Shown here one piece after another: positions 6,226 through 32,531 of a stretch of 64,000 nt of DNA; position 1 is the stretch's first letter; each line of letters begins with the position of its first letter. The stretch comes from Serpula lacrymans var. lacrymans S7.9 (taxonomy: Eukaryota; Basidiomycota; Agaricomycetes; Boletales; Serpulaceae). The stretch covers positions 470,507 through 534,506 of the forward strand of contig NW_006763307.1 of assembly GCF_000218685.1 (NCBI RefSeq). Direction: 5' to 3'. The translations under genes were made by a program, and so were the position numbers. The notes beneath the pieces were generated by a model. It was not told where the DNA came from and made no database searches. It worked only from the letters and a program-made list of their open reading frames with translations.

Positions 6226-6572
6226 ATAAAACTAAGTGAAACTCAGCTGCTGCTCGAGAGGCTATAGAAATGACTTTATTATTTACCTAAGTGAAACTAC
6301 AATAGATGTTAGTTTAAGGTGATCTCTAATAAATGTAATGTAACATACCTCAGCCGCTGCCCGAGAGGCTATAGAAACGACTGAGGTATTCCTATACTAA
6401 ACCCCCTACTACTTATAGTTGGAGGTGCTACTCGCTACAGTATAATGACTCCTAGGAGTACAATTGTGCTCCTAGGAGAACAATGGTTACTCCATGGAGT
6501 GGTGGCTATGCTCCATGGAGAACAATGGCTGCTTTGGCAGAGACCGGGTTTATCCGATTTTGTCAACACCGT
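6226..6572. repeat. Repeat X, uninterrupted copy (unclassified, about 345 bp)
   Basis: This stretch recurs at 13783-13874 (left part) and at 26330-26358 plus 32532-32966 (right part). It has two related blocks, each with CTCAGC(T/C)GCTGC...GAGGCTATAGAAA.GACT, at about 6241 and 6350. Then follow a block starting CTGAGGTATTCCTATAC, a cluster of palindromes and an end near GTTTTGTCA. No coding capacity is seen. The junction GATGTTAGTTTAAGG at about 6305-6319 is the empty site for the large TIR element at 13875-26329. It could be a non-autonomous element or an LTR-type fragment; its termini are estimates from where copies stop matching. Confidence 0.7.
6449..6520. repeat. Four 10-bp perfect palindromes at about 21-bp spacing
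   Basis: CTCCTAGGAG occurs at 6449-6458 and 6469-6478, and CTCCATGGAG at 6490-6499 and 6511-6520. Starts are 20, 21 and 21 bases apart, i.e. about two DNA turns. A decayed version is present in the X copy at about 32646-32915, where a solo LTR splits it. The regular spacing looks like a binding array or a cruciform-prone segment. Confidence 0.75.
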
Positions 6573-11946: not shown

Positions 11947-11951
11947 GCGTG

Positions 11952-12580: not shown

Positions 12581-12585
12581 GCGTG

Positions 12586-13782
12586 TGGTAGGTGTAGCTG
12601 TAGCGAAGACGATGGACAAAAGATAAGTGTACCCAAGTGAATGGGACAGCGATGAACATGGGCGACGCAAGGGGATGAACCTTCTCCAGCTCAAAAACTA
12701 CCCACCCACGCTCCAACCAGGCAAGACAAGCGACCAATGTTTTGATAGTATATGATGGCAGATCAACGTCATGAAGATGGACCTGTTGCCCTATTTGGAC
12801 CGGCCGCCGGGGCTTTGCTGATATCAGCAGTGGCACGTGGTAGTCAACGGATCGGCGATGGAAGCGGATAGGAAGTGGTGACATCAGAAATGGTGGGGGT
12901 GCAAATAAGATGAGGAGGAGGAGGGTGGAGGTGACGGAAAAGTGGATTAGAATGGGGATCCAGAAATGACCGTCAGGTGAGAATAAAAAGGAGAGGAAGG
13001 GGCCCATGGTGGGGCTAGGCAAAGGAAGGGGAGTAAGGGAAACGACAAAAGCGAGGGCGCAATGCAATGTGTAGCCAGTGGCGACGCGAAAATTTGCCGA
13101 AATGCCGAAATGCGGAAAGTACCGGATGGAAAAGCAAAGGTGAGCGTGACTGGATTGCCTAATAGAGGTGGTGCTGATCAGCCACAAGTTCAAAAGGGCA
13201 ATATTAATTACTATTCCACGTGGCACTGTGCCTGTGTGGCGCAAAGGCGAGTCTTTTTGAATATTCGCTTCGTTATTGACACCTGTCCATGCTACCAATC
13301 AACTTTGGTGCATGACACTGTGCATCGTGCGCAGTGTGGTGGTAGGAGGCAGGGCCCTGGGACCCTCGTCACGTCAGAGTGTTCGAAGTCCTGTTACTGT
13401 AATGGGAAGTCAGAATAATATATGAACCGTGACTGTCCGGCTTTCCATAAGAAATTGTCAAACTATTTAAGCCAGCTTCTTGTATGCAACACCTGTGTTT
13501 GTACGTACCATCTCGGCAGTAAGAATGTTTCTCGTTTCTTCTTGCAAGAAGCTCGTAGGCCAGTTTGACAATGAGCCCAAGCGCCTGACAAGAATTACAT
13601 GTTATCATAAAGCATATTCAACGCCTTTTCGCTACACAGGTGAGTAGCCCAATGTCAAATCAAGCTGCATGACTGGCTATTTTCATGGAGAAGAGACTGA
13701 ATCTTATTCTGAAAGATGTTCTTCAAGAATGTGAGGGCCTTCCCGATTTGCATTGTGGTATGATATTGGATATAATAAATCT
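12586..13782. other. No supportable gene
   Basis: A 248-codon minus frame (12552-13298) is open but runs through the end of the solo LTR, is biased in composition (Pro/Leu/Ser from G/A-rich plus-strand DNA) and shows no domain. I treat it as chance. The segment 12900-13080 is strongly purine-rich on plus. Confidence 0.45.
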
Positions 13783-13874
13783 AAGTGAAGCTCAGCCGCT
13801 GCCTAAAAGGCTATAGAAACAACTTTATTATTTATCTAAGTGAAGCTATCTAAGTGAAGCTACAATAGATGTTA
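13783..13874. repeat. Repeat X, left fragment at the insertion site of the TIR element
   Basis: CTAAGTGAAGCTCAGCCGCTGC through CTACAATAGATGTTA matches 6231-6310 of the uninterrupted copy, with an extra internal repeat of CTAAGTGAAGCTAT. It stops exactly at TA (13873-13874), where the terminal inverted repeat begins. Confidence 0.8.
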
Positions 13875-13900
13875 CATCAGTAAAAGTCAAAGTTACTTTG
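13875..13900 (+). repeat. Left terminal inverted repeat of the Plavaka-type element
   Basis: The first 14 bases, CATCAGTAAAAGTC, are identical to the inverted right end; after a 4-base mismatch block both continue TTACTTT. It is preceded by the TA duplication. Confidence 0.85.
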
Positions 13901-15787
13901 GTCGTTTTAGACAGCTTAATGTTACTTTTAAGCTAGATCAAGCTGACAAAGGTGACAAAGTCAACCTAAGATCAAACTTGCTCGACTTCAAGGTCTACTA
14001 AGGTACCCAGAAAAGTATCAAGTTTCATAAGAGAAATCAACATATTTGATTACAACAAAAGTAAAACCAAGTGCCTGCTAAGACAAAAACTAAGTGTAAT
14101 AAAATTTACAAGGCAAAAATAAGAGATCAGGAAGCTATTCCGAAAGCATGGTGATCAATAAATTTATTGACATAGTAGGCATGGAAAGCATCAAGGGAAT
14201 TGGAAAAGGAAAGTTCTCTGGGCATGAAACAATCACCATAAATTGGGAGTAAATGAGCAGCCTGCAAAATGCAATCAACATGTATAATTTTGAGGGCTGG
14301 ATAGCCTTCTTCATTGACGTCTGGTTGAACCATCCATAAGCCAGTCAGTTCATCTGGGTGATCAGCAATGTGTGAGAACCACTGAATCAGTGCGCATGGA
14401 TAAAATATCCCATCATATACAAAAGAAAAAAAAAGGTGAACTCGAACAACATCAAGTCCTTGCATTGCAAGAGCAGTGGGGTCATGTTCAACAAACACAC
14501 AGTCATAGCGAGAAGGACCGCCCCGCCATGACGGACACGCTTGAATTGTCTCTCGTCGCATCCCACCAATCCCACTGGGATTGCTTGGTGCATAAAAAAA
14601 TGCTACGGCGGAGTGGTGAACAGCGATTTTTGAATTGAAAAGAGGGCAGCAAGAAAGGGGAACATTGGAGCCTTCTGAATCATTCAGACTTCTGTGAAGC
14701 TGATCAAATAAAAATTGTCGGATCATTTCATGCAGTTGGGATTGGTTGATCCAAGCACTAAGCTGTTTCACCCTTTGTGGATAGCCAGACTCTGGTTCAA
14801 GGAGACATCAGTTAATGGACAAGAAGAGGCAGAAAAGAATGTACGTAGACACTTTGCAAGTTCTACATGGCTCACTACACCCACATCAGAAACAGGTCCA
14901 CTTTCCTCATCAGCGTCATCAAAGTGATTTGCTTCATTGTTGTGTTGAGATGAAATACGATTGGCGGCTTGATTGTGGTCATCCGGCATCCCCACCATAT
15001 CATGATTATCAACTAGATAACGGATGAGTAAATAGTTAAAGGACAGCTGGAATAGACTATGTTACATACCTAATATAGTGTTTGCATAATTGAGAATATG
15101 GTCAGAAAGCATCCCCCAGTCTGTGAAATCAACTCGGGCCGCTGCTAATTTGTTGAGTCTTTGATTGACGAGTAACATCTGGCCAAGCGCCTCAAAACGG
15201 CTTGAACAATGCCATGGCTCCTTGACTGCTTTGATATGCTTTGACTCTGTGATTGAGGAACATAGGCCATTTGGAGAGCCAAATATTCTGATTAGCATGA
15301 GATAATGTACCAGAGAATGTTGGCGGGGGAGAGAAAAGCCATTTTGCCGAACACCAACATTCTGGAAGATAATATGGTACCGATGGAATCTTGATAGGAC
15401 ATCTTGTACAAGCACAAGGGTGTCTTCATCATGTGAATCACACCATACAAAATAGCAAAATTCAAGAAAAGCCTGAAATGTTCTGACTACGTCAGGTGGT
15501 ACATGTAGTTGAGTTCAGTATACTATAGTTCAGTAGTAAAAAGAAACATAAAAACCTTCATTAAAGCCTTGGAATCATCTCCAGTCCACTGCTTAAACCC
15601 ACGACCTTGAGGAAATCGTCAGAGGCCTGGAAATAATGGTGCAGCAGAGATACTGAACAGATTGTCAGAGCCTGATATATAAAAATGAGATACTAATTAA
15701 TACATACTGAACATCTATGTCATCCATTATTTCATCTGCTTGTTTTCTCCCATGGGTTTTGACTAACTATTCTTCCACCCATGATAC

Positions 15788-16066
15788 TGTTCAATTGAGA
15801 ACTTCTGGGAAGTGTCTAGCCACTTGCTGAGAGCTAACAGGGACAGAACTAGAGTCCAGTATGAGTAACTAAAGAATAGGAATACTGGACTCTGCAATAC
15901 TAGTCCGAAGTTTTGTAAACAAAGGTAAACAAATCAGCCACAAAGGCGAAATTATAGAATGCTCAGTGAATACTGAATAATACAGCAAAAAAAATAAAGA
16001 GGAAAGTGATTTAGAAAGAAGGGAAAATAGATAGCACAACTAGGTGCAGAATCACCAAAACTAACA
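15788..16066 (-). repeat. Copia 3' LTR
   Basis: In the element's direction it starts TGTTAGTTTTGG (right after the purine tract GGGGGGAG at about 16067-16074) and ends CTCAATTGAACA. It contains an inverted pair AGTCCAGTAT/ATACTGGACT near 15854-15892. Length 279 bp, against 228 bp for the other end. A second purine run, ATCAGGGGGGAG, lies about 40 bp upstream and encodes the last residues of pol. Confidence 0.75.
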
Positions 16067-16095
16067 CTCCCCCCTGATGCTGCACCTCCCAAGCA

Positions 16096-19000
16096 TTAGC
16101 TCCCCCCTGATCTAACAAGTCCCATTATCTGTCTGAACATGTCAACTTTAGGCTTAGCCAGAGCCTTGGTCAACAAATCAGCAGGCATTTCAGCAGTGGG
16201 CACAAAGGTGGGAGCAATTTGGCCAGAGCCAACAATATCTTTCAACCAATGCCAGCGTAAATCAAGGTGCTTCATTCGACCATGGTGTTCAGGATTCTTG
16301 GACACAGAGATGGCAGATTGGTTGTCAATGTGAAGGGTGGAAGGAGAGGTGATAGGACAGCCTATTTTCTTCAGCAGATTTCGCATTCAGCAGATCTCCT
16401 TGCCAGCTTCAACAGCAGCAATATATTCTGCCTCAATGGTGGAAAGAGCAACAATGCTTTGAAGTTTGGAACTCCAAGAGACAGCACCAGATCCAATCTT
16501 GACAAGGTAAGCACCAGTAGAACGTCCAGAGTCCTTGTCACCACCATGATCAGCATCAGAGAAAGTGGTGAAGAGTTCAGTGGAATTAGGATCAGGGCCA
16601 AGGACAAGTGAGTGATTGAGGGTGCCTTGCAAGTAGCGGAATAAGTGCTTGACAGCACCCCAGTGAGTGGGCCCAGGATTGGAATTGAATCTGGCAAGAA
16701 CTCCAACAGTATAGGTAATGTCAGGACGAGTGGTGGTGGCCAAATGCATCAGAGCACCAACAGCAGCAAGATAGGGAATGTCCTTTATCAGTTGCACTTC
16801 TTCTGGTGTCTTGGGAGACATATCCTTGGTGAGGCGTGAACCGGGGTCCATTGGAGTGGACACAGGCTTGCAGTCCTTCATGCCAAAGCGCTCCAGAATG
16901 TCCAGAGTGTACTGATGTTGGGAGAGGGAGATGGTGCGATTGCTGAGGTCTCTGGTGATGGAAATGCCAAGTAGGTAGGAAGTAGGGCCAAGATCACGAA
17001 GTTTGAAGTGCTGAGAGAGGTCCTTGACAGCTTGGTCAAGTGCAGAATTGGATGTGGATGCCAGTGTCATGTCATCAACAAAGACAGGTAGAATAATGCG
17101 CACTCCACCTCTATTAAACACATAGATGGCAGAGTCAGAGTAAGTGCGATTAAATCCGAGTTTTTCAAGCACAATGTGCATCTTCTGGTTCCACATCCTG
17201 CCTCCTTGCTTGGTCCCATAAATGGCCTTGTTGAGTTGGCAGACCAGATTACGACCACCTTGATGGAATCCCTCTGGTTGCTGCATGTAGACCTTTACAT
17301 CCATGACACCATTGAGAAATGCATGAGAGATGTCAATGGAGAGCAAATGGAGGTTGTGGATGGCAGCAATTGCAAGGATAACTCTGATAGATGAGATGCG
17401 AACAGTGGGTGTAAATAGAGGTTGTGGATGGCAGCAATTGCAAGGATAACTCTGATAGATGAGATGCGAACAGTGGGTGCAAATATTTCAAGGAAGTCAA
17501 AGCCAGGGCGCTGGTTGTAACCTTTAGCCACATATCTGGCCTTGTAGCGCTCAATGGAGCCATCGGAGTTGTGCTTGATCTTAAAGACCCACTTGCCACC
17601 AATTGCCTTTTCTCCAGGAGGTAGTTCCACAAGTGACCAAGTTCCATTGTGCTCATGAGCTTGGAGCTCTTCCATGGCTGCTTCTCTCCATTTATCTGCA
17701 TCAGGACGCTTCATTGCATCTGCAAATGACCTAGGCTCAGCAGAGTCTCCAAAGTGTGCCACTTCATCATCAACTGCCTCAGAATCACTACTCTCACCGT
17801 TATCACTCTCAATGGCAGGAGTAGGTTGTCTGTGTTGAAGCCACCATGGTCTAGGTGGTCTCCTAGCCCTTGCAGGGCGTCTCAGTGCAATAGGCAAGTC
17901 AGGAGAAGGTGAGCGATGAGGAGGGTGATCTGGAAGCTCAAGAGGTTGATTCACAGGTGGTTTTGCATCAAGGTCCAAATCAGGCCCATCATCAGGCAAG
18001 TGCTGAGGTTGCTGAGGTTGCTGAAGTACAGCTGGTGGGTCAATATCTCCCCCTGGACCTGGTGCAGGGACATCCTCATCCAGGCCCAAAGGCATGGGAA
18101 GTGAAGGTGGCAAATGTGGAGTAGGAATGGCAGTGGTAGAAGTCTTTTTCAAGCCAGGGAAGTAGCGCTCATCAAAATCAGCTCTTTCAGAGATAATGGT
18201 GTGTTTGGTGGTAGGATTGTAGAATTTCCAACCCTTGTACCCAGCAGGGTAACCAATGAACACACATTTCTCCATGTGAGAGCCAAAAACACCTCTCTTA
18301 TCCTTTTGCACATGCACATAAGCAGTGCACCCCCAAACACGAAGGTGTGACATGTCTGGTTTATGTCCATGCCACAATTGATAAGGAGTAGCATTGACCA
18401 CTGCATCAGTGGGACACCTATTCCAGACATGCACCAAGGCACCTAGGCATTCACCCCAGAAGATATTAGGCAATCCAGACTCTGAAAGCATGGTAGTGAT
18501 TCTTTCAGAGAGAAGCCTGTTTGCTCTTTCTGCAACTCCATTCTGCTGAGGCCTATTCCGGGTGGTATGCTGTCTGACAATGCCATGATCATCTGTGAAT
18601 TGCTCAAACTCCTTGGAGATGTACTCTCCCCCTTTGTCATCGCGCAGAGCCTTGATTTTTCGCTCTAATTGAGTCTCAGCATAAGCCTTGAAACTCTTGA
18701 AAGCATTAAAGACATCTGACTTGGCCTTCAAAGGGACAACAACACAAAATCGAGTGTAATCATCGATGAAGGTGACCCAATATCGATACCCAGAGAATGA
18801 AGGGGAGGAGACTTGGTGTACATCAGAGTGGATGAGGTCTAGAGGGTGAGCAGAGCGATGAGAAGATGAAGGGAATGGGTTGGCAGACATTTTTCCAGAC
18901 AGACATGGTTCACAGATAGGATCAGGAGTAGATTTAGACTCAAGTGTCATTCCAGTAACAAGGTTTTCTTGTGTCAATTTCTTGACATCAGCATAGTGGT

Positions 19001-19748
19001 GGTGAGCCAATCTTCAATGCCAAAGGTTTAAGTCAAGTGGAATTGTTGCAGAAAAGTGTCCCAATTCAACACAAGAAACAGTGGATCCATCAAAGAATGC
19101 AGCATTATTGTTGTTGATGGTTGCAGTGAATAAGAGAGTGTTGCCATGTATGAAGGACATAAATTGAGATGAAATGATGACTTTAAAACCACTTTGACGA
19201 GTTAAGTACAAAACTGAGAGGAGATTATTTCGAAGATCTGGTACATGCAGCACTCTGGAGAATTCTACAGCCCTTGATTCCTTGCCATTGATGATAGGGT
19301 TAAACACCACAGTACCAATACCAGCTGAATAAACAACAGTATGATCTGCTAGCTTTATGGGAACACGATATGGTGCATAATTGCGAATCCAGTGACGATG
19401 AGGTGTCATATGAGAAGTGGCACCTGTGTCTGCATTCCAATCAATGTTGGCATCAAGCTGGAGAGGGCAGTGTAAGTCAGAGGGATGAATAGAGTGGAGG
19501 CTTGCATTTCTAGCCGACTCTGCAACCACAGTAGAAAAATGGTATTTTGCACCAGATATGGCAGATTGATTACAATGATGGCAGTTAGGAGATGAGCAAG
19601 AACAATGAGTAGGAGCAGAATATGAATGAGGAGTACATTTAGTTTTATCCATGGTGTGGAAATGAGCTGGCGAAGCAGTGGAGGTGGATAATGGAGAAGG
19701 TCCAAAAAGTGCACAGAAAGGTCCAAAGGGTCCAAAAGAGCGGTCCAA
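16096..19748 (-). pseudogene. Copia PR-IN-RT-RNaseH polyprotein, three breaks
   Basis: Reading leftward: a Cys/His-rich start (HCSCSSPNCHHCNQ) that may be the zinc knuckle's remains; protease with NADTGATSHM; the pre-integrase segment ending DLNLWH; integrase with CEPCLSGK zinc ligands, then HSDVHQVSSPS, DYTRFCVVVPL and the DDE segment to GVAERANRLL; a Pro-rich linker; RT from LPPGEKAIGGKWVFKIK through LSIDISHAFLNG and YLVFVDDMTL-like FVDDM (catalytic Asp pair); RNase H with FSDADHGG, LSTIEAEYIAA and HIDNQSAISVSKNP. Breaks: TGA at 19014-19016 where Arg follows WH (CGA to TGA fits); a 68-bp tandem duplication at 17351-17486 that shifts the RT frame; TGA at 16387-16389 where Trp is expected after GKEIC. 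No Gag domain is found upstream. The product would have copied and integrated the element. Confidence 0.88.
17351..17486. repeat. 68-bp tandem duplication inside the Copia RT frame
   Basis: 17351-17418 is repeated at 17419-17486 with about two base differences (GTGTAAATAG versus GTGCAAATAT at the ends). 68 is not a multiple of three, so it breaks the reading frame between VRISSIRVILAIAAIHNL and LSIDISHAFLNG. Confidence 0.9.
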
Positions 19749-20551
19749 AAGCGGTCCAGGAGGGTGCTAAGGCCTCCTAGTGATACTACAGGGTTACGCC
19801 TGTGTTCCCCTTTCAATACTACACTGATATTAACAGAGAAATCGCCTCGAGACAGTGTTGGTTAAAAGGGCTTGTATATGAGTCAACAAAGTGACTTAAG
19901 CTCCCCAAACACCGCAGACTGAGAGAGGCTCTGGGAAACAGCAAACTGAGGCAATGCAGGCGAGCTTCACAGTCTATAGGCTTGTTCTATCTGATAATGG
20001 ACAGAGCAGAGAAGATTGGAGCTTTATGCAAGCACCAGATATGCCAAAAAGCGAAAATATAGGCCAAAAAAAATCGAAATTGTCACAGGGACAGATGGAG
20101 TGGATGGATTGCCCCCAAAATATAGGTGTGGGGAGCGATTATATGGTGCAATAGATAGGCCAAGTATGGCCAGAAACGAAGCACAGGGAGTGGAGGGGTA
20201 TAATAGGGGTGGAAGTGGTGATCAGAAAATGATAGGGGCTCACAGGGAGATCAAACTCAAAATCCACCACTCTGAGGAGTCTCCTAGGGTTTTCAAGGTC
20301 GTAGAAGACAATGGTAGGAGTTTGGGGACAATCAGATAAGGATTGGGTGAGATATGGCACTGATAAGGCCAAAAAAGCGTCCAAAATGAGGTTCCAAGCA
20401 ACAAAGGCTTATAGGGAGTAATCCAGATGGAATCAAAGCAAACAGAGATGATAGAGAGGGTTACCAGAGACCCAGAAGACAATTTGCAAGAGGGATAAGC
20501 AGTAGGGTGCTTGGATGATGAGGTATGAAGTCAGGAAGATGGCTAGAGCAC

Positions 20552-20564
20552 AGGGCTCATAACC
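20552..20564 (-). promoter_or_regulatory. Primer-binding site, half-tRNA(iMet) type
   Basis: Directly after the 5' LTR end (TTTTAACA) the element reads GGTTATGAGCCCT. This is complementary to the anticodon arm of initiator tRNA-Met (GGGCTCATAACC), the cleaved half-tRNA primer known for Drosophila copia and Ty5. It fixes the LTR boundary at 20565. Confidence 0.8.
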
Positions 20565-20792
20565 TGTTAAAATTGGATATTGACCAGACCAGGGATTGAA
20601 CCTGGAACCTTCTGGATACATGCCAGCTGCTCTACCAATTGAGCTATATGGTCAAGGTTATACAATGTAGGATCTTAAACATGACATGCAACCATGGACG
20701 TCTTACACAGAATAGCTGCTGCATACTGGGCTGGCTTACAAATCAGAGGTATTATCCTATGGAGTATTGGTATGTCAGAGTATATTCTAACA
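20565..20792 (-). repeat. Copia 5' LTR containing a tRNA-like unit
   Basis: In the element's direction it starts TGTTAGAATATACTC, next to the target duplication, and ends CCAATTTTAACA, next to the primer site. Length 228 bp. The last 90 bp hold a tRNA cloverleaf. I see no alignment with the 3' LTR beyond the ends. Confidence 0.72.
20581..20653 (-). tRNA. tRNA-like Pol III unit embedded in the LTR (anticodon position TGT, degenerate)
   Basis: The minus strand folds as a complete tRNA of 73 bases: acceptor GACCATA/TCTGGTC (6 of 7 pairs), D arm GCTC/GAGC with the A box TAGCTCAATTGG, anticodon arm CTGG/CCAG with loop CATGTAT, T arm CCAGG/CCTGG with the B box GGTTCAATCCC, discriminator A. A T-run (CAATTTT) 9 bases downstream would end Pol III transcription four bases before the LTR end. 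The loop has A where the universal U33 should be, so a working tRNA(Thr, UGU) is unlikely; it is better read as a tRNA-derived Pol III promoter. Alternative: a captured tRNA gene or SINE head. Confidence 0.75.
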
Positions 20793-22593
20793 GATACAAG
20801 GTGATCCTTGAATGTGCCCTTAATGACTTGATGAAGGAGATCTGGGACGAGAGTTTTATGTATGTCGACTCGGGGAAAGTTGTTGGTAAAAGGCTATTTT
20901 TAATCAAAAGATATATTAGTACAGATCCTCGAAATTAACCACGGCATGAGACTTACTGTGATATCTGCTACTAATCCATACTGATCCCACAGAATCCCTC
21001 GGTCAAAGGCTTTGATCAATGCCTCAGTGTGTAACCTTGAGCGCCAACCAGCTTTGCCATCAAGATTATTGGGTGCTGCAGTACAACTACACCAATATCA
21101 GCCGAGTTTACTTTTAAAGAGTTGAGATGCATACCGAGGACACCATCCCTGAACAATACAAGCTAGTAAGGCTTGTTCAGGATAGTCTGCTATGTATGGG
21201 CCAATCCCATACACAACTCGCTGGAAGTGCTGGTCAGCACAGCGAACAACCTCCGGGGTGGTCATGGCTGGCTTGAGATCTTGAAGAATAGCTGATACTG
21301 ACGTGTGGAACATTTGTCATCAAAAATTGCGAAACCTTGTGTCATTCCCATATTTCTTATCGGCTTAGTAAAAGTTAGTTGAATGAAGGAATGATATGAA
21401 AAAAATACACACTTTTTGGTATAGAAAGAAACCCTAAGAGAGCAAGAGCATTTTGATGGGCTTGACAAACACTGTTGTGAACATTACCAATAGAGATATA
21501 TATCGGGTAATATTCATTTTGTCCTGTTGCAACGGAAACAGTCGTTTTGTCACTACCGAGTATGATGGGTACAAATGTCGATCCGTGTGTGCTTTGGTCT
21601 TCTGCGATGATGTTGGCCTCTTTCCATGCCCAATTACCCGACATGAAGTCTTTGTACTTCCGTTTTCCATTTGCACAAAACTCCCGGTAAGGTACATAGT
21701 CAATATTATCCTTGAAATCAGAATTAGATAGTATGTTGTGTACTATCATTTGTGGACTGCGGTACCAGACGTCAAAACTTTGTGACATCCATGGCGGCGC
21801 ATTTTCCTGAGGTACTTCTCCATTGTAACTAAGCGAAAACAAATCCCATGGTACACCACCAATAGGGGTCGCATCAATGGTCCGGTATAAGTTGTCCTTG
21901 TCAGAAAATGGAATTTGAGCGTCGTCTATGCCATGTTTTATAAATGAGGCTCTCCATAGCTCTGTAAGAGTATTAATGTCTCCTGCCAACATCTGTGTCT
22001 TTGTATAGAGCAGTTCTGCTGTCTCAAACTCAATACAATCCCTGTACGGCATCCACTCAGAGCGAGACGGGCGTTGAGGAATAGTTGGTGGAGTGTTTGG
22101 TGGTAGGCATTGGCCGTTCTCATCACATGGCTTGCCTGTTCTGTGATTTAGCCAAATGTCGCCAGGAAACTTTGAGGGACTTACCATTAAGATATCTGTG
22201 GTATTCGTACTCAGACTGACTGGGTGGTTCTTGCTTGTTTCCATCTGGAACACTTCAATTATTGTTTATTTCGCCTCTGTCTACATCCATCAGTACATTT
22301 GGCATGTGGGTGGGCAATTGGGGCAGGCAAAAGAGTTGAGTGTTCTTGTGAAAAGTATGCATGTGTTTCTCGAGGCCTGAGGTATTCCAGAACCAGTGTT
22401 TGCATTGCTGGATTTCACATGGGATGGTCTGTATCCTTTGAGGGCGCCGAACACGCTGAATACGAGGGACTGGAGCCATTATAGCCCATGAAAGTGTGTG
22501 AATGAGCAATTGACTGCTATGCGACTCGGGATCGTGCGACAAGACTCAGAATTGAGTCTCAAAACAAGCATAAATTGTTTTAGTCACACTTAC

Positions 22594-23220
22594 TATCAGG
22601 CAACAAATACGAAGCTATATAACAAAGCACAATGCCTGGTCAAGTCCTTGCTGGAAGGCGGTGAATCAGGGTATGAGAATGAAGAGTATCGGTATAAGCG
22701 CAAATCCAAACTAATATTGAACTAGAGAACAATACATCGAGTATGTACCTCTTTATATAGTGAACGGCGATGGTCAGTCCGAGAAAGGGAAGAACTGAGA
22801 AAGTGGTCTGACCAGCTAGCTAACCAATAAGAAAAAAGGAGAAGGTGGTCCGATCTATCGTATTTACTAATCGTATGAGAAGATGTATTGGTAAGGGATG
22901 TGCAATTGGCTGTATCAGTAAGCCCATGAGAAGGCGCTGACTCACAACCTTCTTTGCTTATCAATATTCCTCCGAAGTATTCCCAGACATAGCACTGGAT
23001 CGTGGCTATTTCATCTGGATATCTTCTCGAGGGTCAACAACAAGTCTACCTCGTTGTAGGTACGATAGAATGTGAGTATGAAGAGAGAATAAAAAGAAAA
23101 ATGATAAAAGTAATAAGACACCTGCTGTAATCTCTAGTCCAAGGGCAAGAGGAGTGACGGGGATTGAGTCTGCTAACCACGACATGACGGGAATGCGATA
23201 AGAAAAATCGATTCCTCACA
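22594..23220 (-). mobile_element. Solo LTR, family B, copy 2 (inverted relative to copy 1)
   Basis: The minus strand starts TGTGAGGAATCG and ends TTGCCTGATA (TA replaces the usual CA). The duplication CTTAC flanks it on plus (22589-22593 and 23221-23225). It matches 11952-12580 in inverse orientation. It sits between the divergent starts of the transposase (22479) and the companion gene (23290), where their promoters should be. Confidence 0.88.
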
Positions 23221-23289
23221 CTTACCTTGAACCACCTCATTGTTCAATATCCCCCCCCCTAACTGCTCCACAACTCCTTTCACCTTCAA

Positions 23290-25741
23290 ATGACCCACCC
23301 GACTACTTGCGCAAAAAATGCTAGCCAACATCCTGGCAAAGTTTTGCTGGAACTGCAATGCAAAAGGTGTACAAAGGCTGAGATCACAGCAGCAAAGAAG
23401 AAAGAAGAACTTACATTGGAGCAAGTTGAACAAGGGGTGCGAGCAGGACTTGCAGCGGTGGCAGCAATTGAAGATAAGCAGGTGCTTGAGGATGGGGAGG
23501 CTTCATTGACAATGCCCCCACCCTCTCAGTGCCGCTTAGTTCATCGCATGAGTAGCATGAGGACTGTACCTGATAGCGAGGAAGAGAGAGGAAAATCAGT
23601 TACAGCCAGTGAGGATGGAGATGCTGTAGCAGACCTCTATGATGATGAACCATCCCAGCGTCAAGGAGTCATTGAGCCACAGGGACCGAACTACGTTGAT
23701 ATCAAATCTTCGTGGGTTCCAAATTATGACTACCTTGAGTCATCTCAGCCTCAGCACTATGGGCCATTTGAGCTTCAGGAAAACGAGATGGAGCTCAGGT
23801 CGACACCAGATGAACAATCCCAGGCTGCAGGTTCTGACTCAGATCATGCAGGTTTAGAACTTATGGATGAAAGAGAAACCGCCTTACCTTGCACCCAAAG
23901 AAGCAAGGTGATTGAAATTGATTCCAGCAACAAGGAAGGAAAGTGTCAAAGAAAAAAGTTGAAGGTAACTATGAGTGGGAGAACAGCTGTTACAGCGTTG
24001 CGAAAGCAGCCAGCTGCACCAGCTGCTCAAAGCAACATGGAGGTTGCGGCTATGAAACCAGTGGCGGCTCAAGTTGGTGGCCAAAAGCCATGTGCAAAAG
24101 TCAGTTTCTTCCTGAAGCTTATCACCGCAATCACTGATCACTATTACCACCGCAACAACAACATGCTCTACCTCACTGAAACCACACTGCTCTTCTACCG
24201 GAACTTAAGGCCTACAAAATCCATAGAGCCACCAAATTCCAAGCTCTCTGGCATCAAATCATGGTGTTCAAAGGTCATTATGTTGGAAAAGGAGTCTAAA
24301 AAAGGCCTACACGGCACCTCAAGTCTCAGTGAAAAAGGCTCTTCTGCGTCAAGCTTCTTCAATAAAACAACACGTAGTTCCTGTACCTCGGTGCCAGTGT
24401 CTGTGCAAAAAGGCCCCATTTCCAGAGACACACAGGATACAGAGGCAGCTTTGCAGTACCAAATGGGAGGTCTAGAGGACAAACTTGAGACAGACAAAAG
24501 AGATCATGCATTAGCAGGGAAAAAACGCGGATTAAGCTCAGTAAGTTTTTTTTTCCCATCTGTTTAACGCTGATAAACATTAGCAGGTTTCTTCTGTGAA
24601 AATTGAGAAGACAACCGATGTTTTCCCTGTAAAGCGTGCAAAGACCGAAACTATAGCAAAGACTAGGAATGCCAATTTACCTGAAGGCTGTCTTGAAGGT
24701 GGCCGCTGGCACAGCGTGTTTGTACCCACATATGAAAAATGGGCAGCATCTCAGAAAAATCCGTGGAGCATTGAGGACTCAAAGGCCATTCCAGCCATGC
24801 AAGCCATCTGGGATGTCATCTTCCCGGACATTCCATACACAATTACCCCCAATGGCCCCGTATATCGTATAGTAAGCTCTTGCCATTTCAATGACTTATA
24901 TATTCACTCATTTTCCCTTATTTTAGCTTGGCCAACGGGTTTCTGAATGGCGTGGTAGCTTTGGTTCAGCAGCTGCTGTAATTGTTGAGCACTTCTTTGC
25001 ATCTGACCCTGATTCTATGACACATACATCAACCGCCAATTGTTTTCTCAAAGCATGATTGAAGACTTTGCTTTTCTCTACGAAGATGTAGGGGACAGCG
25101 CTTCAGTGAGTCTGATCTCAAATTGTTTTGAAATTTTCCCCATAACTGATGGAAATGTAGGAACACCAAGAATTGTTTCGCTCAACATTCATCTTACAGA
25201 TGTTTGCATCACACCTTAATTCTATATCCGGTGCTGTGGAGGTCAAAGCATTGAGAGCAGCTGGTGTTCCAGTGAATTCATCTGACGTTCAGAAGTTCCC
25301 TCCTGTAGGGGCTCTGGCCTTGTCTGCTGCCGCTGTAAGTAATATATGCACTCTTTGGCACTTTGATAATCTTTTATTTTATTTTAGGTCGAGCATATTT
25401 TCACAATGTGGGCAAAAAAACAAATCATGTGGGATGAAAACTCAGAGGGCGGTAATGGTACCGCAAATGAGGGGAAGGCATCTTCGAAGGTGCTTATAAA
25501 GCCCATCCCCAAGCTGAATAAATCAACCGGGAAGGAGACCGCTAGTCATGCGTTATTCTCTGATACTAACTGGGGACAAGTGACCCGCTATTATTGCTTG
25601 TCCATTCAGAAACTCAAACAGGACTCTATTGAAGACATTGTACAAAAAGCCAAAGTGTTTGCGAGGATTCCTAAAAGTGCAGTGTCCTCTTCTGTGGACA
25701 ATGACTCTGAAGATCCTTGTGCTTGCCTTGTTGATGTCTAA
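23290..25741 (+). CDS. Unnamed companion gene of the Plavaka-type element
   Basis: Exon 1 (23290 to about 24540) encodes a basic, Lys/Glu-rich N-terminus (HPGKVLLELQCKRCTKAEI, then a likely coiled coil) and a long acidic/Ser-rich stretch (PDSEEERGKS, IEIDSSNKEGK) and ends near KKRGLSS. Later exons carry a conserved C-terminal domain: GRWHSVFVPTYEKWAAS, AIPAMQAIWDVIFPDIPYT, LGQRVSEWRGSFGSAAAVIV, SQSMIEDFAFLYEDVGD, FRSTFILQMFASHLNSISGA, PPVGALALSAAAVEHIFTMW and KLKQDSIEDIVQKAKVF, ending at 25741. I know this architecture as an abundant, unnamed protein family in repeat-rich Agaricomycetes but know no function. A frame change near 25025-25040 (between DSMTH and YINRQLFSQ) may be a one-base lesion. 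Position inside the TIRs, divergent from the transposase, suggests an accessory role such as end binding (like TnpA of plant CACTA elements); this is inference. Confidence 0.7.
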
Positions 25742-26301
25742 GGTTACATTCCTCATTCTCATTTCTCGTCACTGATGGCTGATATTGCAATTACAATCAC
25801 AGATATCAGTGTGCTGCTGCTAGGATCTGATGGTCCATATGCAATTAAGCTGATGATTAGCAACTCTCCCCAACGCATCCATTATACATTTCTGTCCACT
25901 AATGATTGTTTTCTGAGTCGTTACATGCCGCTATATGCTCATTTGGACTGGATTGTTTCATTTTTTTCCCCTGCTTTACTCTTACTTGTTTTTTGATTAT
26001 CTTGCTATGCTTAGTTACTATGCCTTGAAATTGTCTTATAATGAACTGTTTTTGTGCTTTGTCTCTCCTTGAAGTGCCTTATAAGTGTTTTAACAGTCCT
26101 TTAATGGATTTCCAAGTCATCTTAAGGCCTTGTCAAGACAGCCATAAGCTTGAATCCAGACGGTTATAAGCTCAAATCTAGATGGCCATAAGCTCAAATC
26201 CAGAGCAGCAACCTCCTTGGTTGATCTTGAAGGAGGGCTTTGTACTTGGAAAATATTGTGTCTTAAGTCGTCTTAAATGGCAATTAAGCTCAATTAAGAT
26301 C

Positions 26302-26329
26302 AAAAAAGTAAGCTCGACTTTTACTGATG
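26302..26329 (-). repeat. Right terminal inverted repeat of the Plavaka-type element
   Basis: Read on minus it is CATCAGTAAAAGTC followed by GAGCTTACTTT, matching the left end at 13875. TA follows at 26330-26331 and then repeat X resumes with GTTTAAGGTGATCTC. Confidence 0.85.
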
Positions 26330-26358
26330 TAGTTTAAGGTGATCTCTAATAAATGTAA

Positions 26359-26775
26359 TGTAACAACCAAGAGTTAGTTACTCTGGCGCACACAGAAACA
26401 CACTATAAGGAAGATGATGAGGGAGTGGTTACCCTTTAGGCTGCAGAGAGTTAGTTGGTTAACAACAGGAGGACTCGCTGAGGAGTCTCCTGGATTTATT
26501 GGGGTATATATACTACTACAGGGTTATTTGTACATATGTACTATACAGTTGATAGCGACAGTGGCTGATGATGTCATGGGGCCTAGCCCGCATGGCCAGC
26601 TCCACTGTGTGAGAGAATTGTGTCTATAATAAAAAAAAAGGCAACGCGGCGCGAGAAAGAGGAGTTTGGAAAAAAGGGGAAGTGCCGTGTGGCACCATGT
26701 GTGAAAGCTAAAGTAAAGGTTTAAAGCAGAGAAATAAAAGTAAAGGGAAGGTCCGAAAATTGTGTTATTGTAACA
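26359..26775 (-). repeat. Gypsy 3' LTR
   Basis: On plus it reads TGTAACAACCAAGAG to TTATTGTAACA (417 bp). It is about 97-98% identical to 32114-32531. GGTATATATACTACTAC (about 26503) gives a TATA-like box on minus. The adjoining 26776-26792 reads on minus CCTTAGAAGGGGGGTAG, the polypurine tract that primes plus-strand synthesis. Confidence 0.92.
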
Positions 26776-26786
26776 CTACCCCCCTT

Positions 26787-28310
26787 CTAAGGCTCGACTT
26801 CCAGGCGAGACCAAATACCGGAGGTAGTGGTAAAATTTTCGGGCATAGGTTGAAAAAGAGAATTAAAAAGATTTGAATCCATGCCTCTAAGCTTCCTAGG
26901 AGCTGAGGGATTCTTAGAATAAAATTCGTGAACAGCGTTGCGGGAATTGTCCAGATGGGCTTCTGGTTCCCACGTTCTGTCCTTGTCTCCATAGCCCTTC
27001 CATAGGACTAGGAACTCTAATTTACCACGCTTCAAGCGTGCATCCACCACCCATTCGACTTCAAACTCTTCTTCACCTTCCTGGGTGACTACAACTGGTC
27101 CGGGCCGGTCTACACGCTGTCCCGGCAGCGGCCCTTTGTAGGGTTTCACACGGCTTATATTGACCGTGGGTACTACCCTCATCCGTTTTGGGAGTTCCAG
27201 CTCCACTGCGTTGGGTTTGACTTCCTTAATCTGGTAAGGGCCAATCCACTTTTCGGTCAGTTTTCTAGACTGCCGATCTTTTAATTTTAAGTGGTCGGTA
27301 TCTAACCAGACCAGGTCGCCGACCTTGTAGTCAGGGGCCTTGGAGCGTCTACGCTCTGCCCTGTCTTTCATTTGCTCTGCAGTTTTAAATAGTGCCTTGC
27401 GCGTTTTGTCTAAGACAGCTTTCATGTCCTTGGCCATGTTCCCAGCAGCCTCGTTCTTGCTTTTACCAGGTTCTACACCCATTCTGGGGAGGTATGATCT
27501 AGTAACCTCAAATGGTGCCTTTCCTGTAGCCGACGACTGTTTGATATTATAAGAGAACTGGGCTATCTTTAGCCACTTGGCCCAATCTGTCTGTCTGTCA
27601 TTAATAAATATCCGGAGATATTGTTTCAACTCCTGGTGGAGTCTCTCCGTTTGTCCATCAGTTTGCGGATGGAACACCGTTGATAATTTAGGTTTGATGC
27701 CCAGCATCTTGCATAATTCTTCTGTAAATTCGCTAGTGAATTGAGGTCCCCTATCGGAGATCACCGTTTCTGGTAACCCATAGATAGACCATACAAAATC
27801 TTTAAATAAATCTGCCGTACCCGCGGCGGTAATGGTTTTATTGGTAGGTATGAATACTACTTCTTTGGAGAAGCGATCGACTACCACTATTACTGAATTG
27901 TACCCATTTGACTCGGGCAGATCTGTTGTGAAATCAACCAATATATCCTGCCAGGGACCAGTTGGTATCAGATTTGGCATAAGTTTACCGGCCGGCGGTT
28001 GATGAGAATTTTTTGCCATGGCACATCTCAGACAGGATTTTACATATCCCTGTACGTCTTTGACCATGCCAGGCCACATGTAGTTTCTGGAGATCAACTC
28101 CATTGTTCGTTGCCACCCAGGGTGCCCAGCCACTGGAGTGTCGTGATGTCTATCTATTGCCTTGATCCTTGCGGACTCAGGCACATAGATTTTGTCTTTA
28201 AAATGGAAGAGCCCGTCTTCCCATAAATAGTTTTCATTGCCGTCAAGGTGCGCCTTCTCTTCTGAGGAGATGTCTTTCTTGAAGACTTCCAGAAGATCGG
28301 AATCCTGCCC
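26787..28310 (-). CDS. Gypsy integrase with C-terminal chromodomain
   Basis: The open frame begins without a start codon of its own (it would be part of the polyprotein), at about NVRIGQDSDLLEVF. The integrase zinc-binding HHCC motif follows (HHDTPVAGHPGW, CLRCAMAK), then the catalytic core: DILVDFTTDLPES, VISDRGPQFTSEF and DGQTERLHQELKQYL (D, D, E). A GPY/F-like segment (KWIGPYQIKEV) precedes the chromodomain (FEVEWVVDARLKRGKLEFLV, WKGYGDKDRTWEPEAHL), which in chromoviruses steers integration to modified histones. The frame ends at 26787, near the purine tract. This part looks intact; the lesion is upstream, where the connection to RNase H is lost. Confidence 0.9.
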   Translation of the reverse strand, partial: GQDSDLLEVFKKDISSEEKAHLDGNENYLWEDGLFHFKDKIYVPESARIKAIDRHHDTPVAGHPGWQRTMELISRNYMWPGMVKDVQGYVKSCLRCAMAKNSHQPPAGKLMPNLIPTGPWQDILVDFTTDLPESNGYNSVIVVVDRFSKEVVFIPTNKTITAAGTADLFKDFVWSIYGLPETVISDRGPQFTSEFTEELCKMLGIKPKLSTVFHPQTDGQTERLHQELKQYLRIFINDRQTDWAKWLKIAQFSYNIKQSSATGKAPFEVTRSYLPRMGVEPGKSKNEAAGNMAKDMKAVLDKTRKALFKTAEQMKDRAERRRSKAPDYKVGDLVWLDTDHLKLKDRQSRKLTEKWIGPYQIKEVKPNAVELELPKRMRVVPTVNISRVKPYKGPLPGQRVDRPGPVVVTQEGEEEFEVEWVVDARLKRGKLEFLVLWKGYGDKDRTWEPEAHLDNSRNAVHEFYSKNPSAPRKLRGMDSNLFNSLFQPMPENFTTTSGIWSRLEVEP

Positions 28311-28314
28311 GATT

Positions 28315-29034
28315 CTAACATTGGCCAGGCTTATGAATTAATTTATAATTAAACCTTGACAAGTATACCGCGTAGTGGGCCTGTCTTCGGTTCAAGTCTC
28401 GGGCCGTCATAAAATATTCCAGATTCTTATGATCAGTCCAAATTTCAAATTGGTGCCTAGCACCTTCTAAGTAGTGCTGCCAGTGCTCTAAAGCTCTAAT
28501 GATGGCCAGCATCTCTTTATCATATATTTGATAGTTGCGCTCTGTAGGCGACAAACTATGCGATAAATAGGCACAAGGCCTCCAAAGATCGTCAGGGCAT
28601 TTAATTGACAAAACAGCCCCAGTAGCAAAATCAGAAGAGTCGGTTTCTAGCCGGAACTCTTTGTCTAATTCTGGAAATGCTAATATGGGCGCCATTGTAA
28701 ACGCCTGTTTAAGCTTATTAAAAGCTTCTTGTTCTTTGGCGCCCCAGTGCCAAACAATGTCCTTTTTAGTGAGATCGTTCAACGGTCTTGTGATTTTTGT
28801 GAAGTTTTTGATAAACCTTTGGTAGAAATTGCCTAAGCCAAGGAAGGCCCTAACTCCTTTGACGCAAGTAGGTTCTGGCCACTCCAAAATAGCTTGAACT
28901 TTCTCAGGATCCATCCTGATTCCGTTCTGGCCTATGATCATACTGAGGAAGTCTACTTCCTTCACTTTAAAATTACATTTTTTGGGTTTGACGAATAGGT
29001 GCCGTTCCTGTAAACGTCGAAGGACTTCTTGCAC
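28315..29034 (-). pseudogene. Gypsy RT thumb and RNase H segment
   Basis: It starts in the connection after the RT palm (QEVLRRLQERHLFVKPKKC), with FLGLGNFYQRFIKNF, LETDSSDFATGAVLS (RNase H first Asp), YQIYDKEMLAIIRALEHW (Glu) and IWTDHKNLEYF (Asp), ending HKPGQC then stop at 28315. Related elements have some 70 more residues before the integrase text that here follows at once (NVRIGQDSD), so a deletion has removed the tether and shifted the frame. Confidence 0.82.
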
Positions 29035-29053
29035 GATCCTGTCATGCTCAGTC

Positions 29054-30541
29054 TCATCGTCTGACTTTGTAGATTATTAATAAATTGTCGTTGTAGATGA
29101 CGACACAGTTTTCCATATCCGCAAAGATCTCGTTCATCATGCTCTGGAAGGTCGCCGGTGAATTGGTCAACCCAAAAAACATAATGAGGGGTTCAAAGGA
29201 TCCTCGGTGGCACGTGAACGCGGCCTTCCAAGCATCTGTTTCTTTGATTTGTACGTTATTGTACCCCCATCTGAGATCCATCTTTGTCAAGATCTTGGCA
29301 CCAGCCAATTTGTCTACTAGCTGACTGATCAAAGGTAGCGGATACACATTTTTAACTGTGTGCTCATTCACGTAACGATAGTCTATAATCATACGCTTCT
29401 TACCATCCTTTTTAGGAATGAAGAACACTGGGGACGTCATAAGGCTTTTGGAAGGTCTGATGTAACCCTTCCTAAGCTGTTCATCTATGAAACTTGAGAC
29501 CTCATCTCTTTCTGGAGCAGAGAGTGGTATCATGTGTCCTTTTCTCGGTTTGAAGGTGTCCTTCAAATCTATAGCATGGTCCCAAGGCTTAGCCTCTGGG
29601 AAGCGCTCTGATTTATGTTTTGAAAAGACTTTCCAGAAGTCATGGTACTCAGGAGGTACCAGCCTCTTAATCTCTTCTTCGGGTTTTACTTCATCATCGT
29701 CATCATCAATCTTTTCTAAAGATCTGAGCTCATAAACGTTTTCAGCGTTTATCTTCTCAAGACATTTGTTGTGACGGACATGATTCGGTTTACCCAAGTT
29801 TACACACTCCTGAGGGCAACATGACAATGTGACAACCCCTGTCTGCCAGTTGATCTCAGGATTGTGTTTAAATAGCCAGGTCCAGCCTAAGATTAAATTA
29901 ATCTTCCCTAGTTGGGTAGCTTCGGCGGTGACTCGTTCTCTGTGTCCTTGGTATTCAACAACAAAAGAACATTTGTGCGTGATGCAGCCACCCGCGTTAA
30001 GCGTACCGTCAACATTATAGACGGGAATAGATACATCTAGTTTTACAAGGAGGAGTCCAATTTGCTCCGCCCAGACCTGATTGATGAAGATTCCGTTAGC
30101 GCCTGAATCAAGTAGTGCGCTGGTTGGGTGTACTATGCCCCGGGCAAGATTTTCCACACCAGCATCTAAACGGATCTCTTTTCGGAATAAATATGTGCAC
30201 ATCAACACACGCCTTGGGATTTTGGGAAAGGGTGGCTCCAATAAAGAAGAAGAGGTATCAAAATTTACATGTTTTTCTATTTTATTTTTACCAGAATCAA
30301 GCACCCTAGTGTTTGTCTCGCCAGGGCCACGCTCCAGAGGAGACGCCGGTGCAGCAGTAGTATCATAAATATTACAGTTACAATGTTTCATACAAGTACA
30401 TACTTCAGATAATAAGTTTAGAAATTTATTTACAAATTGGGGAGCCATCCCCATCTTTCCTTTATTGCTTGTGCAACACCCCGGAGCAGGGGCCACCTTG
30501 TTGTGGTTTACTTCATTGTTCATAGGAGCGAAGGCACCCAA
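29054..30541 (-). pseudogene. Gypsy protease and RT fingers-palm
   Basis: The aspartic protease has ALLDSGANGIFINQ and LGWTWLFKHNPEI. The RT has WDHAIDLKDTFKPRKGHMIP, KGYIRPSKSLMTSPVFFIPK, TKMDLRWGYNNVQIKE and FGLTNSPATFQSMMN. The catalytic box reads IYNDN instead of the usual YxDD, and the frame then runs to a stop at 29054. The next base phase continues SDDETEHDRIVQEVL, so one base was gained or lost near 29063. The protease end of the frame is out of phase with Gag, as is common where frameshifting joins Gag to Pol. Confidence 0.85.
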
Positions 30542-30546
30542 GTGAC

Positions 30547-31596
30547 CTAAGCTCCGAACTCTTTTCCCTGAGCCTTCATTTCATTGACCTGTTGGTCATA
30601 GAAGAAAGCTCAGATTTCATCGTATGAACGACCGGCCAGAGTATTGAGCCGATTGTCCGGTTTTTCGATTTCTAATTGGTGCGCCTGGCGCCCTTGGTTA
30701 TTTTGAGCAGTCTGCACTCCATTTGGACACTTTCGGGCTATGTGCGCCTCCTGCCCACAATTGTAGCAGGTGAATCTGCGCGTCTGTCCGCCTTGGACCG
30801 CACCGATATCCATAGGAGCACCTCGACCTGGTTGCAGCCCGAACGGCTGGAACCCGTGAGAGTGTTTATGTTGGTTTGATGACCCAGGGCGCCTCTGGGA
30901 TTCGTTGTTTTTGGTGATGGACCCGCCACCTTGGTGCATTTGGTAAAGCTCCATGGCTCTACCGATTCGTCGTACTTCCTCAGCCGCCAGGGCCAAGTTC
31001 TCGTTTCTTGTATCCTGCAAGTAGATTTGTTCTGCAATGCAAGGGTTCACATTGCGCTCCAGCAGTTCTACTGCATGTTCATTACCAAGCCCTCCTTGGA
31101 TGGAGAGGGCCAGGAAACGGGTAACATAGTCATCCGTCCTCATGTTTCCTTGTTTGAAGGAACGGATTTGCTGACGCGCCCAGTCACGCTCAGCTTGCAG
31201 TTTGAAATATTTTTCAATCTCTTTCTTGAGATCGTCCCAGGTTGGCCACACTCCCGCGGTGTAGCATTCCTGCAATCTTACTTGGGCGTATCGACCTGCC
31301 ACAGGTCCTTTTAGTCGAGATAGCACCGCAGTGGCTACCTCAAAATCATCGGTGAACGCGTCCCAGTTTGCCTTGACCCAAATTTGGAGCTTGATCCACC
31401 ACTCGGCGAATTGTGCTCTGTCTCCTTCGAAGGCGCCAGGGTCAGCAACGACTTCAACTTTCTTGTTGAATTTCTTCTCGACCAAGGGGGTTGCCGCAGG
31501 AGGGTTATTCTGCAGCTCAGCGAGTTGCGAGGTCAATGTTGCAATCTGCGTACGCATAGCGTGCAGCAGAGCATTCATATCTTGTTGCGACGACAT
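30547..31596 (-). pseudogene. Gypsy Gag with zinc knuckle, one stop codon
   Basis: The frame starts at 31596. It has a short coiled N-terminus (ALLHAMRTQIATLTSQLAEL), a retrotransposon-gag domain (FAEWWIKLQIWVKANWDAFT, DWARQQIRSFKQGNMRTDDY) and the CCHC knuckle CYNCGQEAHIARKC. A TGA at 30610-30612 follows SYDEI; the same frame continues AFFYDQQVNEMKAQGKEFGA to a TAG at 30547, so the stop most likely replaces an Arg codon CGA. Gag builds the particle and binds the RNA. Confidence 0.85.
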
Positions 31597-32113
31597 GTCG
31601 ACTTGTTCTCTTTGTAAAGTAATAAAAACGTAACTGGGGGTCCCCGCTTGCTATCTGCGGATCTACCTCTTCCCAGCTAAGTATCGGATCTCAATCTCCA
31701 ACTACCCACACTATAGTATTTGAAAAGTATATAAAAAGTATTTGTAAGAAACCCTGGTCCAAATGGTTGTCAGGGGGTGGTCCGCTTGTTAAGCTGTCAA
31801 CCCTTCTCCAACTGGCGGAGGCAAGTGCCCGGCCTGGTCAGAGGTATTTGAAGAAGAAGTTTTGTATGTTAATTCTAATCAACAGCGGTTCCACACCGAC
31901 TGCTGAGCTAAGTACTCCCCTTAACGCTGGGGGCCGCATATCAAAGGTTTTGGTTCTTCTCCCAAAGCACTACAAGGCCGTCGCGAAGAGCGCACCTATC
32001 TGCTATGCGGGATATTCCCAACCAATAACCAAATCTCCTTCACCCTGGAGTCCGGGTGCCCAGTGGGACTTTTTTGCACAAACATGCGAGAGAGTAGAAA
32101 GAGCGAGTCCTAA

Positions 32114-32531
32114 TGTAACAACCAAGAGTTAATTACTCTGGCGCACACAGAAACACACTATAAGGAAGATGATGAGGGAGTGGTTACCCTTTAGGCTGCA
32201 GAGAGTTAGTTGGTTAACAACAGGAGGACTCGCTGAGGAGTCTCCTGGATTTATTGGGGTATATATACTACTACAGGGTTATTTGTACATATGTACTATA
32301 CAGTTGATAGCGACAGTGGCTGATGATGTCATGGGGCCTAGCCCGCATGGCCAGCTCCACTGTGTGAGAGAGTTGTGTCTATAATAAGAAGAAAGGCAAC
32401 GCAGCGCGAGAAAGAGGAGTTTGGACAAAAGGGGAAGTGCCGCGTGGCACCATGTGTGAAAGCTAAAGTACAAGGTTTAAAGCGGAGAAATAAAAGTAAA
32501 GGGAAGGTCCGAAAATTGTGTTATCGTAACA
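32114..32531 (-). repeat. Gypsy 5' LTR
   Basis: 418 bp, TGTAACAACCAAGAGTT to TTATCGTAACA on plus. It differs from the 3' LTR by about nine substitutions and one indel, several of them A/G or C/T, which suggests a fairly recent insertion. The sequence inside it on minus is TTAGGACTCGCTC; I see no classic TGG-starting primer site there. Confidence 0.92.

What the first reader, a model, noticed from the sequence alone, without database searches (positions are those of the whole stretch)
13875..26329. A complete two-gene Plavaka-type transposon delimited by TIRs, TA duplication and an empty site
TIRs 12.4 kb apart match exactly for 14 bases, flank the two halves of repeat X and enclose a transposase and a divergent second gene. 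The unoccupied X copy shows the same sequence joined at a single TA. Plavaka elements are known, but defined ends and a carried second gene are seldom described, so this locus can anchor the family's true structure.
Basis: partly seen in the sequence, partly recalled or inferred. Interest (0 to 1): 0.8.

Follow-up and report, generated by a model that had tools for sequence, protein, structure and literature searches.

The report
Two-gene fungal Plavaka transposon, now decayed
This is an old, broken copy of a known kind of fungal jumping gene, and its relatives in the same genome suggest that a fungal protein family of unknown function belongs to these jumping genes as a second, oppositely oriented gene.

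Summary
Exact 14-bp inverted ends (13875-13888, 26316-26329) with TA on both sides enclose a Plavaka transposase (PF18759) and a divergent second gene. The window's other X copy and 10 further X copies have a single TA at that site. It is a PlavakaB-type DNA transposon: published PlavakaB termini are CATCA..TGATG with 2-3-bp target duplications (PMC12730594). The ends are complete but the copy is not intact: a 5.0-kb Copia-type insertion splits the transposase, a 0.62-kb insertion sits between the genes, and gene 2 has a frame break. TA is not a fixed target: the second full copy is flanked by TT, and 3 of 6 sister copies by 3-bp repeats. All 5 exact genomic copies of the 14-mer lie at sequences matching this element's ends. 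New here: gene 2 is homologous to DUF6532 (PF20149). In this genome 42 of 79 gene-2-type places lie within 10 kb of a Plavaka match, 38 of the 42 divergent (random mean 1.6, maximum 7 in 1,000 trials); KDZ transposases and DUF6698 sit at chance. So DUF6532 looks like the usual second gene of these elements in this fungus (probably Serpula lacrymans). An accessory role in transposition is inferred, not shown.

The parts
13875..13888 (+). left terminal inverted repeat CATCAGTAAAAGTC
   Evidence: exact
26316..26329 (-). right terminal inverted repeat
   Evidence: exact
13873..13874 (.). TA target duplication, left
26330..26331 (.). TA target duplication, right
13773..13874 (+). left half of repeat X
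26330..26358 (+). right half of repeat X (resumes after the LTR element at about 32537)
6224..6345 (+). unoccupied copy of X, single TA at the insertion point
14127..22545 (-). Plavaka transposase gene (broken, interrupted by the Copia-type insertion); C2H2-like stretch at 22258-22545 read by eye (no Pfam match)
   Evidence: PF18759 in 21378-22265, E 1.5e-63; C(2)C across the intron near 21093-21145; H(3)H and E in ORF 15062-15514
21378..22265 (-). transposase exon with PF18759 positions 1-166
15788..20792 (-). nested 5,005-bp insertion with Copia-type integrase and reverse transcriptase, TSD GATAC; no LTR pair found
   Evidence: single target site in L066
22594..23215 (.). nested 622-bp insertion, 10-bp TSD TCACACTTAC; inverted relative at 11951-12581
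23290..25741 (+). second gene, DUF6532-related by homology to L068, with a frame break in the exon starting 24927
26359..32531 (-). LTR element (Gypsy-type by eye) inserted in X, TSD TGTAA

Best explanation
A PlavakaB-type cut-and-paste DNA transposon of the CACTA/Mirage/Chapaev/Transib group inserted into a copy of repeat X and duplicated TA. It carried two divergent genes: a transposase and a DUF6532-type protein. The copy then decayed through nested insertions and frame breaks. Shown: the ends, TSD, empty site, both genes, and the recurrence of the divergent pair in at least three families of this genome. Inferred: the transposase cuts at the CATCAG ends, and the DUF6532 protein is a transposition accessory (end binding, complex assembly or protection from silencing), transcribed from the region between the two genes.
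For: Ends, TA and empty site. PF18759 E 1.5e-63, with the C(2)C and H(3)H..E signature that PMC12730594 gives for the group. Second copy L066: seven aligned pieces 93-98% identical, same ends (one mismatch in the right 14-mer), TT flanks, both genes. Six sister copies with CATCAGTAAA(A/G)TGTC ends, 3-bp TSD in 3 of 6. A third family at C1:5038154-5045160 and on C9, 99.5-99.8% alike over the three compared pieces, with CATC..GATG ends, TA on both sides in both copies, and the same two genes. Gene 2 of L068 matches PF20149, E 1.6e-8, above the cut-off, and is homologous to gene 2 of the window. Association: 42 of 79 gene-2 places near Plavaka, 38 of the 42 divergent; random 6.3 near and 1.6 divergent, maxima 15 and 7; KDZ control 5 of 79 against 4.7 expected; DUF6698 control 6 of 71 against 5.1 expected. 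Of 23 transposase places of the window's subfamily, 17 have a divergent gene 2 within 10 kb. Gene 2 dN/dS 0.34 between L068 and the C14 relative, 0.93 between recent copies.
Against: PF20149 does not score on the window's own gene-2 exons or on P0003, the L066 protein; the link runs through homology to L068. 37 of 79 gene-2 places have no detected Plavaka within 10 kb; 5 of 23 subfamily transposases have no gene 2 there and one has it convergent. 3 of 6 sister copies show no TSD. Copies of one family are not independent events. No function of DUF6532 was shown: the model is helical with no convincing PDB match.
Confidence: 0.85

Rival explanations
1. The second gene is a host or selfish passenger captured by the transposon and has no part in transposition.
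For: 37 of 79 gene-2 places have no Plavaka found nearby. Apart from DUF6532 itself no known domain was found in it and no convincing fold relative. Gene 2 is less constrained than the transposase (dN/dS 0.34 against 0.12 for the same pair of loci).
Against: The same divergent arrangement is kept in at least three families with different ends. Gene 2 shows purifying selection between families. DUF6698, another family of unknown function that is frequent in this genome, is not linked to Plavaka.
Confidence: 0.25
2. DUF6532 genes and Plavaka are neighbours only because both lie in repeat-rich regions.
For: The genome is rich in nested insertions, and the random model ignores clustering of repeats.
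Against: KDZ and DUF6698 show no excess near DUF6532 or Plavaka. 38 of 42 near pairs are divergent, where about a quarter is expected. Copies bounded by inverted ends enclose both genes.
Confidence: 0.03
3. The inverted ends are chance or belong to another element, and the true Plavaka ends lie elsewhere.
For: Only 14 bp match exactly; beyond that the two ends differ.
Against: Empty site, a second copy starting and ending at the same bases, and 5 of 5 exact genomic 14-mers at sequences matching these ends.
Confidence: 0.01

Closest known systems
PlavakaB lineage (Biology 2025, PMC12730594)
   Same: Plavaka transposase, CATCA..TGATG ends, 2- or 3-bp TSD, CMCT motifs; the paper reports six TET-less Plavaka families from S. 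lacrymans, probably this host, so this family may already be in its Data S1 (supplement not readable here)
   Different: The passages and two sections read name no DUF6532 or other second protein for TET-less Plavaka; this element carries no TET/JBP match
Plavaka families of Marasmius oreades (PMC8290104)
   Same: Defined there by PF18759; the paper says TIR motifs were characterised in its Fig. S3 (not seen)
   Different: No second gene is mentioned in the three passages seen
CACTA/EnSpm with TNPA and TNPD (recalled, not from a call)
   Same: Related DDE transposase group; an accessory protein besides the transposase
   Different: No sequence or fold link between DUF6532 and TNPA was tested; PMC12730594 gives CAC..GTG ends and 3-bp TSDs for the fungal EnSpm families it describes

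Membership tests
PlavakaB | Plavaka transposase domain PF18759 | tested here: met
   E 1.5e-63, 215.4 bits, cut-off 26.3
PlavakaB | termini 5'-CATCA..TGATG-3' | tested here: met
   definition from PMC12730594 section 3.2.2
PlavakaB | 2- or 3-bp TSD | tested here: met
   TA here with empty site, TT in L066, 3 bp in 3 of 6 sister copies
PlavakaB | C(2)C and H(3-4)H motifs of the CMCT group | tested here: met
   CPRC across the intron; HSLVH and TES in ORF 15062-15514; read by eye, not aligned to references
PlavakaB | phylogenetic placement in PlavakaB rather than PlavakaA | not tested
   reference sequences of the two lineages were not at hand
TET+ Plavaka | carries a TET/JBP dioxygenase | tested here: not met
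   PF12851 search of the genome gave 18 matches, none on contig C18
DUF6532 (PF20149) for gene 2 | score above the Pfam cut-off | tested here: inconclusive
   window exons and P0003 do not score; the homologous gene in sister copy L068 scores 35.1 against 24 and P0001 38.9
PlavakaA | termini TGT..ACA | tested here: not met
   ends are CATCAG..CTGATG

The most novel reading that the evidence does not exclude
DUF6532, a protein family of unknown function found in several groups of mushroom-forming fungi, is the conserved second protein of PlavakaB transposons: a new helical accessory factor for DDE transposition, kept in divergent orientation across families and sometimes joined by a TET/JBP-like oxygenase. 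Many DUF6532 genes annotated as host genes would then be transposon genes.
Probability: 0.6. Interest if true: 0.6.

Novelty: new member of a known kind. Interest (0 to 1): 0.48.

Why it matters
The element belongs to a lineage whose ends were published in 2025, so the ends are not new. What is added is an identity for the second gene. It turns a fungal domain of unknown function into a candidate transposon component, and it gives a simple criterion (divergent PF18759 and PF20149 between CATC ends) for annotating Plavaka elements and for not counting DUF6532 genes as host genes.

Tried and rejected

Papers: 'Plavaka' 11 papers held, 10 listed; 'DUF6532' 1 paper, which only lists the domain name; combined terms (listings and starts of abstracts only). 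PMC12730594 was seen as passages and sections 3.2.2 and 3.2.3, its supplement not at all; PMC8955403, PMC8290104, PMC9674265 and PMC7473861 as passages only.

Limits of the counts: the Plavaka list is a lower bound (123 of 385 candidates scored). In one search, 102 of the 109 KDZ rows were used (left out: 6 marked below the cut-off and 1 further exon of a place already in the list), and 6 of the 77 matches were added to the Plavaka list. The length of contig C10 was an estimate, and contigs missing from the length table were given 60,000 bases. In one search I gave 72 DUF6698 rows picked by eye, one per place, out of a listing that was itself cut (173 matches), and a hand-reduced Plavaka list that merges to the same 107 places. 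The 23 places are one row per place with E below 1e-20. An earlier run on DUF6532 alone agrees (22 of 53 near, 20 divergent).
Full report
What is there. The window lies in contig C18 of a 42.6-Mb genome. Two gene-2 homologues in public data lie on contigs whose lengths equal those of C17 and C14 (853,755 and 1,109,249) and bear the names Serpula lacrymans S7.3 and S7.9, so the host is probably S. lacrymans, the dry-rot fungus. The 14-bp inverted ends are exact at 13875-13888 and 26316-26329, with TA on both sides. Repeat X continues across a single TA in the window's other copy and in 10 further copies found in loci fetched for other reasons. The string ATGTTAGTTTAAGG is exact in 9 of these 11; L002 and L057 differ by one and two bases. 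The occupied copy has 14 extra bases upstream, so the empty-site match is not letter-perfect over its whole length.

Anatomy. The transposase is on the minus strand. Its PF18759 match covers profile positions 1-166 in one exon (E 1.5e-63). Further pieces follow downstream, with the C(2)C motif across an intron and the H(3)H and glutamate motif in ORF 15062-15514. A 5,005-bp insertion with Copia-type integrase and reverse transcriptase splits this gene (15788-20792, duplication GATAC; no LTR pair was found in it), and a 622-bp insertion lies between the genes (22594-23215, duplication TCACACTTAC). In both cases the second copy, L066, has a single target site. An LTR element, Gypsy-type by eye (26359-32531, duplication TGTAA), is inserted in X, 29 bases beyond the right end. 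The order of events is X, then Plavaka, then the other three insertions in unknown order; that the LTR element came after Plavaka is an assumption.

Other copies. The 14-mer occurs exactly 5 times in the genome: twice here; at the left end of L066 (C17:773724; its right end has one mismatch); at C4:3015464, the left end of a piece 99% identical over 416 bases; and at C16:251010-251023, the right end of a relative 79% identical. No other end was found for the C4 and C16 pieces. L066 encloses both genes between the same ends and is flanked by TT. Six copies of a sister family (66-76% identical to the window in the aligned pieces of L067 and L068) start and end with CATCAGTAAA(A/G)TGTC. Three have 3-bp duplications (CTG in L068, CTA in L070, AAG in L072) and three have none (L067, L069, L071); L072 lacks the stretch with most of the transposase and the start of gene 2. 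A third family with two copies, 99.5-99.8% alike over the three compared pieces, has ends CATCTGTAAAATCC and CATCCAACTGAAAAAT with TA on both sides of both copies, although the flanks differ. It holds a 601-aa open frame with the Plavaka match and a 201-aa open frame with DUF6532 (E 1.1e-14); in the C9 copy the two genes lie further apart.

The second gene. In sister copy L068 it has six exons and 708 residues (splicing done by eye on GT-AG borders) and matches PF20149 with 35.1 bits against a cut-off of 24. The window gene is homologous to it in several stretches along its length, but its own broken exons do not score, nor does P0003, the predicted protein of L066. Homologues occur in Lactarius, Lactifluus, Russula, Amanita, Piloderma, Tricholoma, Suillus and Gautieria. 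One Gautieria gene model joins a Plavaka piece (PF18759, E 1.9e-32) to a stretch matching the gene-2 profile (E 1.3e-64), although PF20149 itself does not score on it: a hint of linkage in another fungus.

Association in the genome. DUF6532 matches (53 merged places) and gene-2 query matches (26) make 79 places. 42 lie within 10 kb of one of 107 Plavaka places, and 38 of the 42 are divergent (2 convergent, 2 same strand). Random placement gives 6.3 near and 1.6 divergent on average, at most 15 and 7 in 1,000 trials. The DUF6532 profile alone gives 22 of 53 near, 20 divergent. Controls are flat: KDZ transposases 5 of 79 (4.7 expected), DUF6698 6 of 71 (5.1 expected). Seen from the transposase, 17 of 23 places of the window's subfamily have a divergent gene 2 within 10 kb, one has it convergent, and five have none. 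Against the reading: 37 of 79 gene-2 places have no Plavaka found near them. Part of this is the incomplete Plavaka list; part may be real solo or host genes. Copies of one family count several times.

Selection and structure. Between L068 and the C14 relative, gene 2 has dN/dS 0.34 over 294 codons; between L068 and its recent copy L071 it has 0.93, as expected for decaying copies; against L066 synonymous sites are saturated (pS 0.79, pN 0.35). A transposase exon of L068 against the C14 relative has 0.12. This fits a gene maintained while elements move, less tightly than the transposase. The predicted domain, from a Russula homologue, is helical (mean pLDDT 76.8, pTM 0.73, 40-sequence alignment), with no convincing PDB relative. 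A role in end binding, assembly or anti-silencing is therefore inference.

Relation to the literature. PMC12730594 (sections 3.2.2 and 3.2.3 and passages seen) defines PlavakaB by CATCA..TGATG ends and 2- or 3-bp duplications and mentions six TET-less families from S. lacrymans. This element fits the features tested; its place in the tree was not tested. The text seen names no second protein for TET-less Plavaka. 'DUF6532' occurs in 1 paper of the library, as a domain name in a list. The statement that the link is not in print rests on these searches only; supplements and subscription papers were not seen.

Noticed in passing
L073:4165-4554 (C1:1068964-1069353) and C1:4497055, C1:493656, C1:425115: TET/JBP-like frames (below the Pfam cut-off) lie about 1.4-1.5 kb upstream of DUF6532 matches on the same strand at 4 of 18 TET places; two of these are about 5.7 kb from a divergent Plavaka transposase. 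They look like three-gene Plavaka loci in a fungus for which PMC12730594 reports no TET+ Plavaka.
   Followed up: partly
genome-wide, TET against KDZ: 5 of 18 TET/JBP matches lie within 5 kb of a KDZ transposase, all convergent.
   Followed up: no
L076 and L026 (C14:283193-288510): Gene 2 of this element is much closer to the sister family (dS 0.28) than its transposase exon is (dS 1.23), which may mean exchange of genes between Plavaka families.
   Followed up: no
window 11951-12581 and 22594-23215: Two inverted relatives of a roughly 0.6-kb element with 9-10-bp target duplications, possibly a MULE-type non-autonomous transposon.
   Followed up: partly
P0027, Gautieria morchelliformis: One 424-aa gene model joins a Plavaka transposase fragment and a gene-2-type fragment.
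   Followed up: partly
window 6224-6565, 13773-13874, 32537-32965: Repeat X is itself a frequent element of unknown type: both halves in 10 of the first 68 fetched loci, apart from the two that cover the window, and a piece in L068.
   Followed up: no
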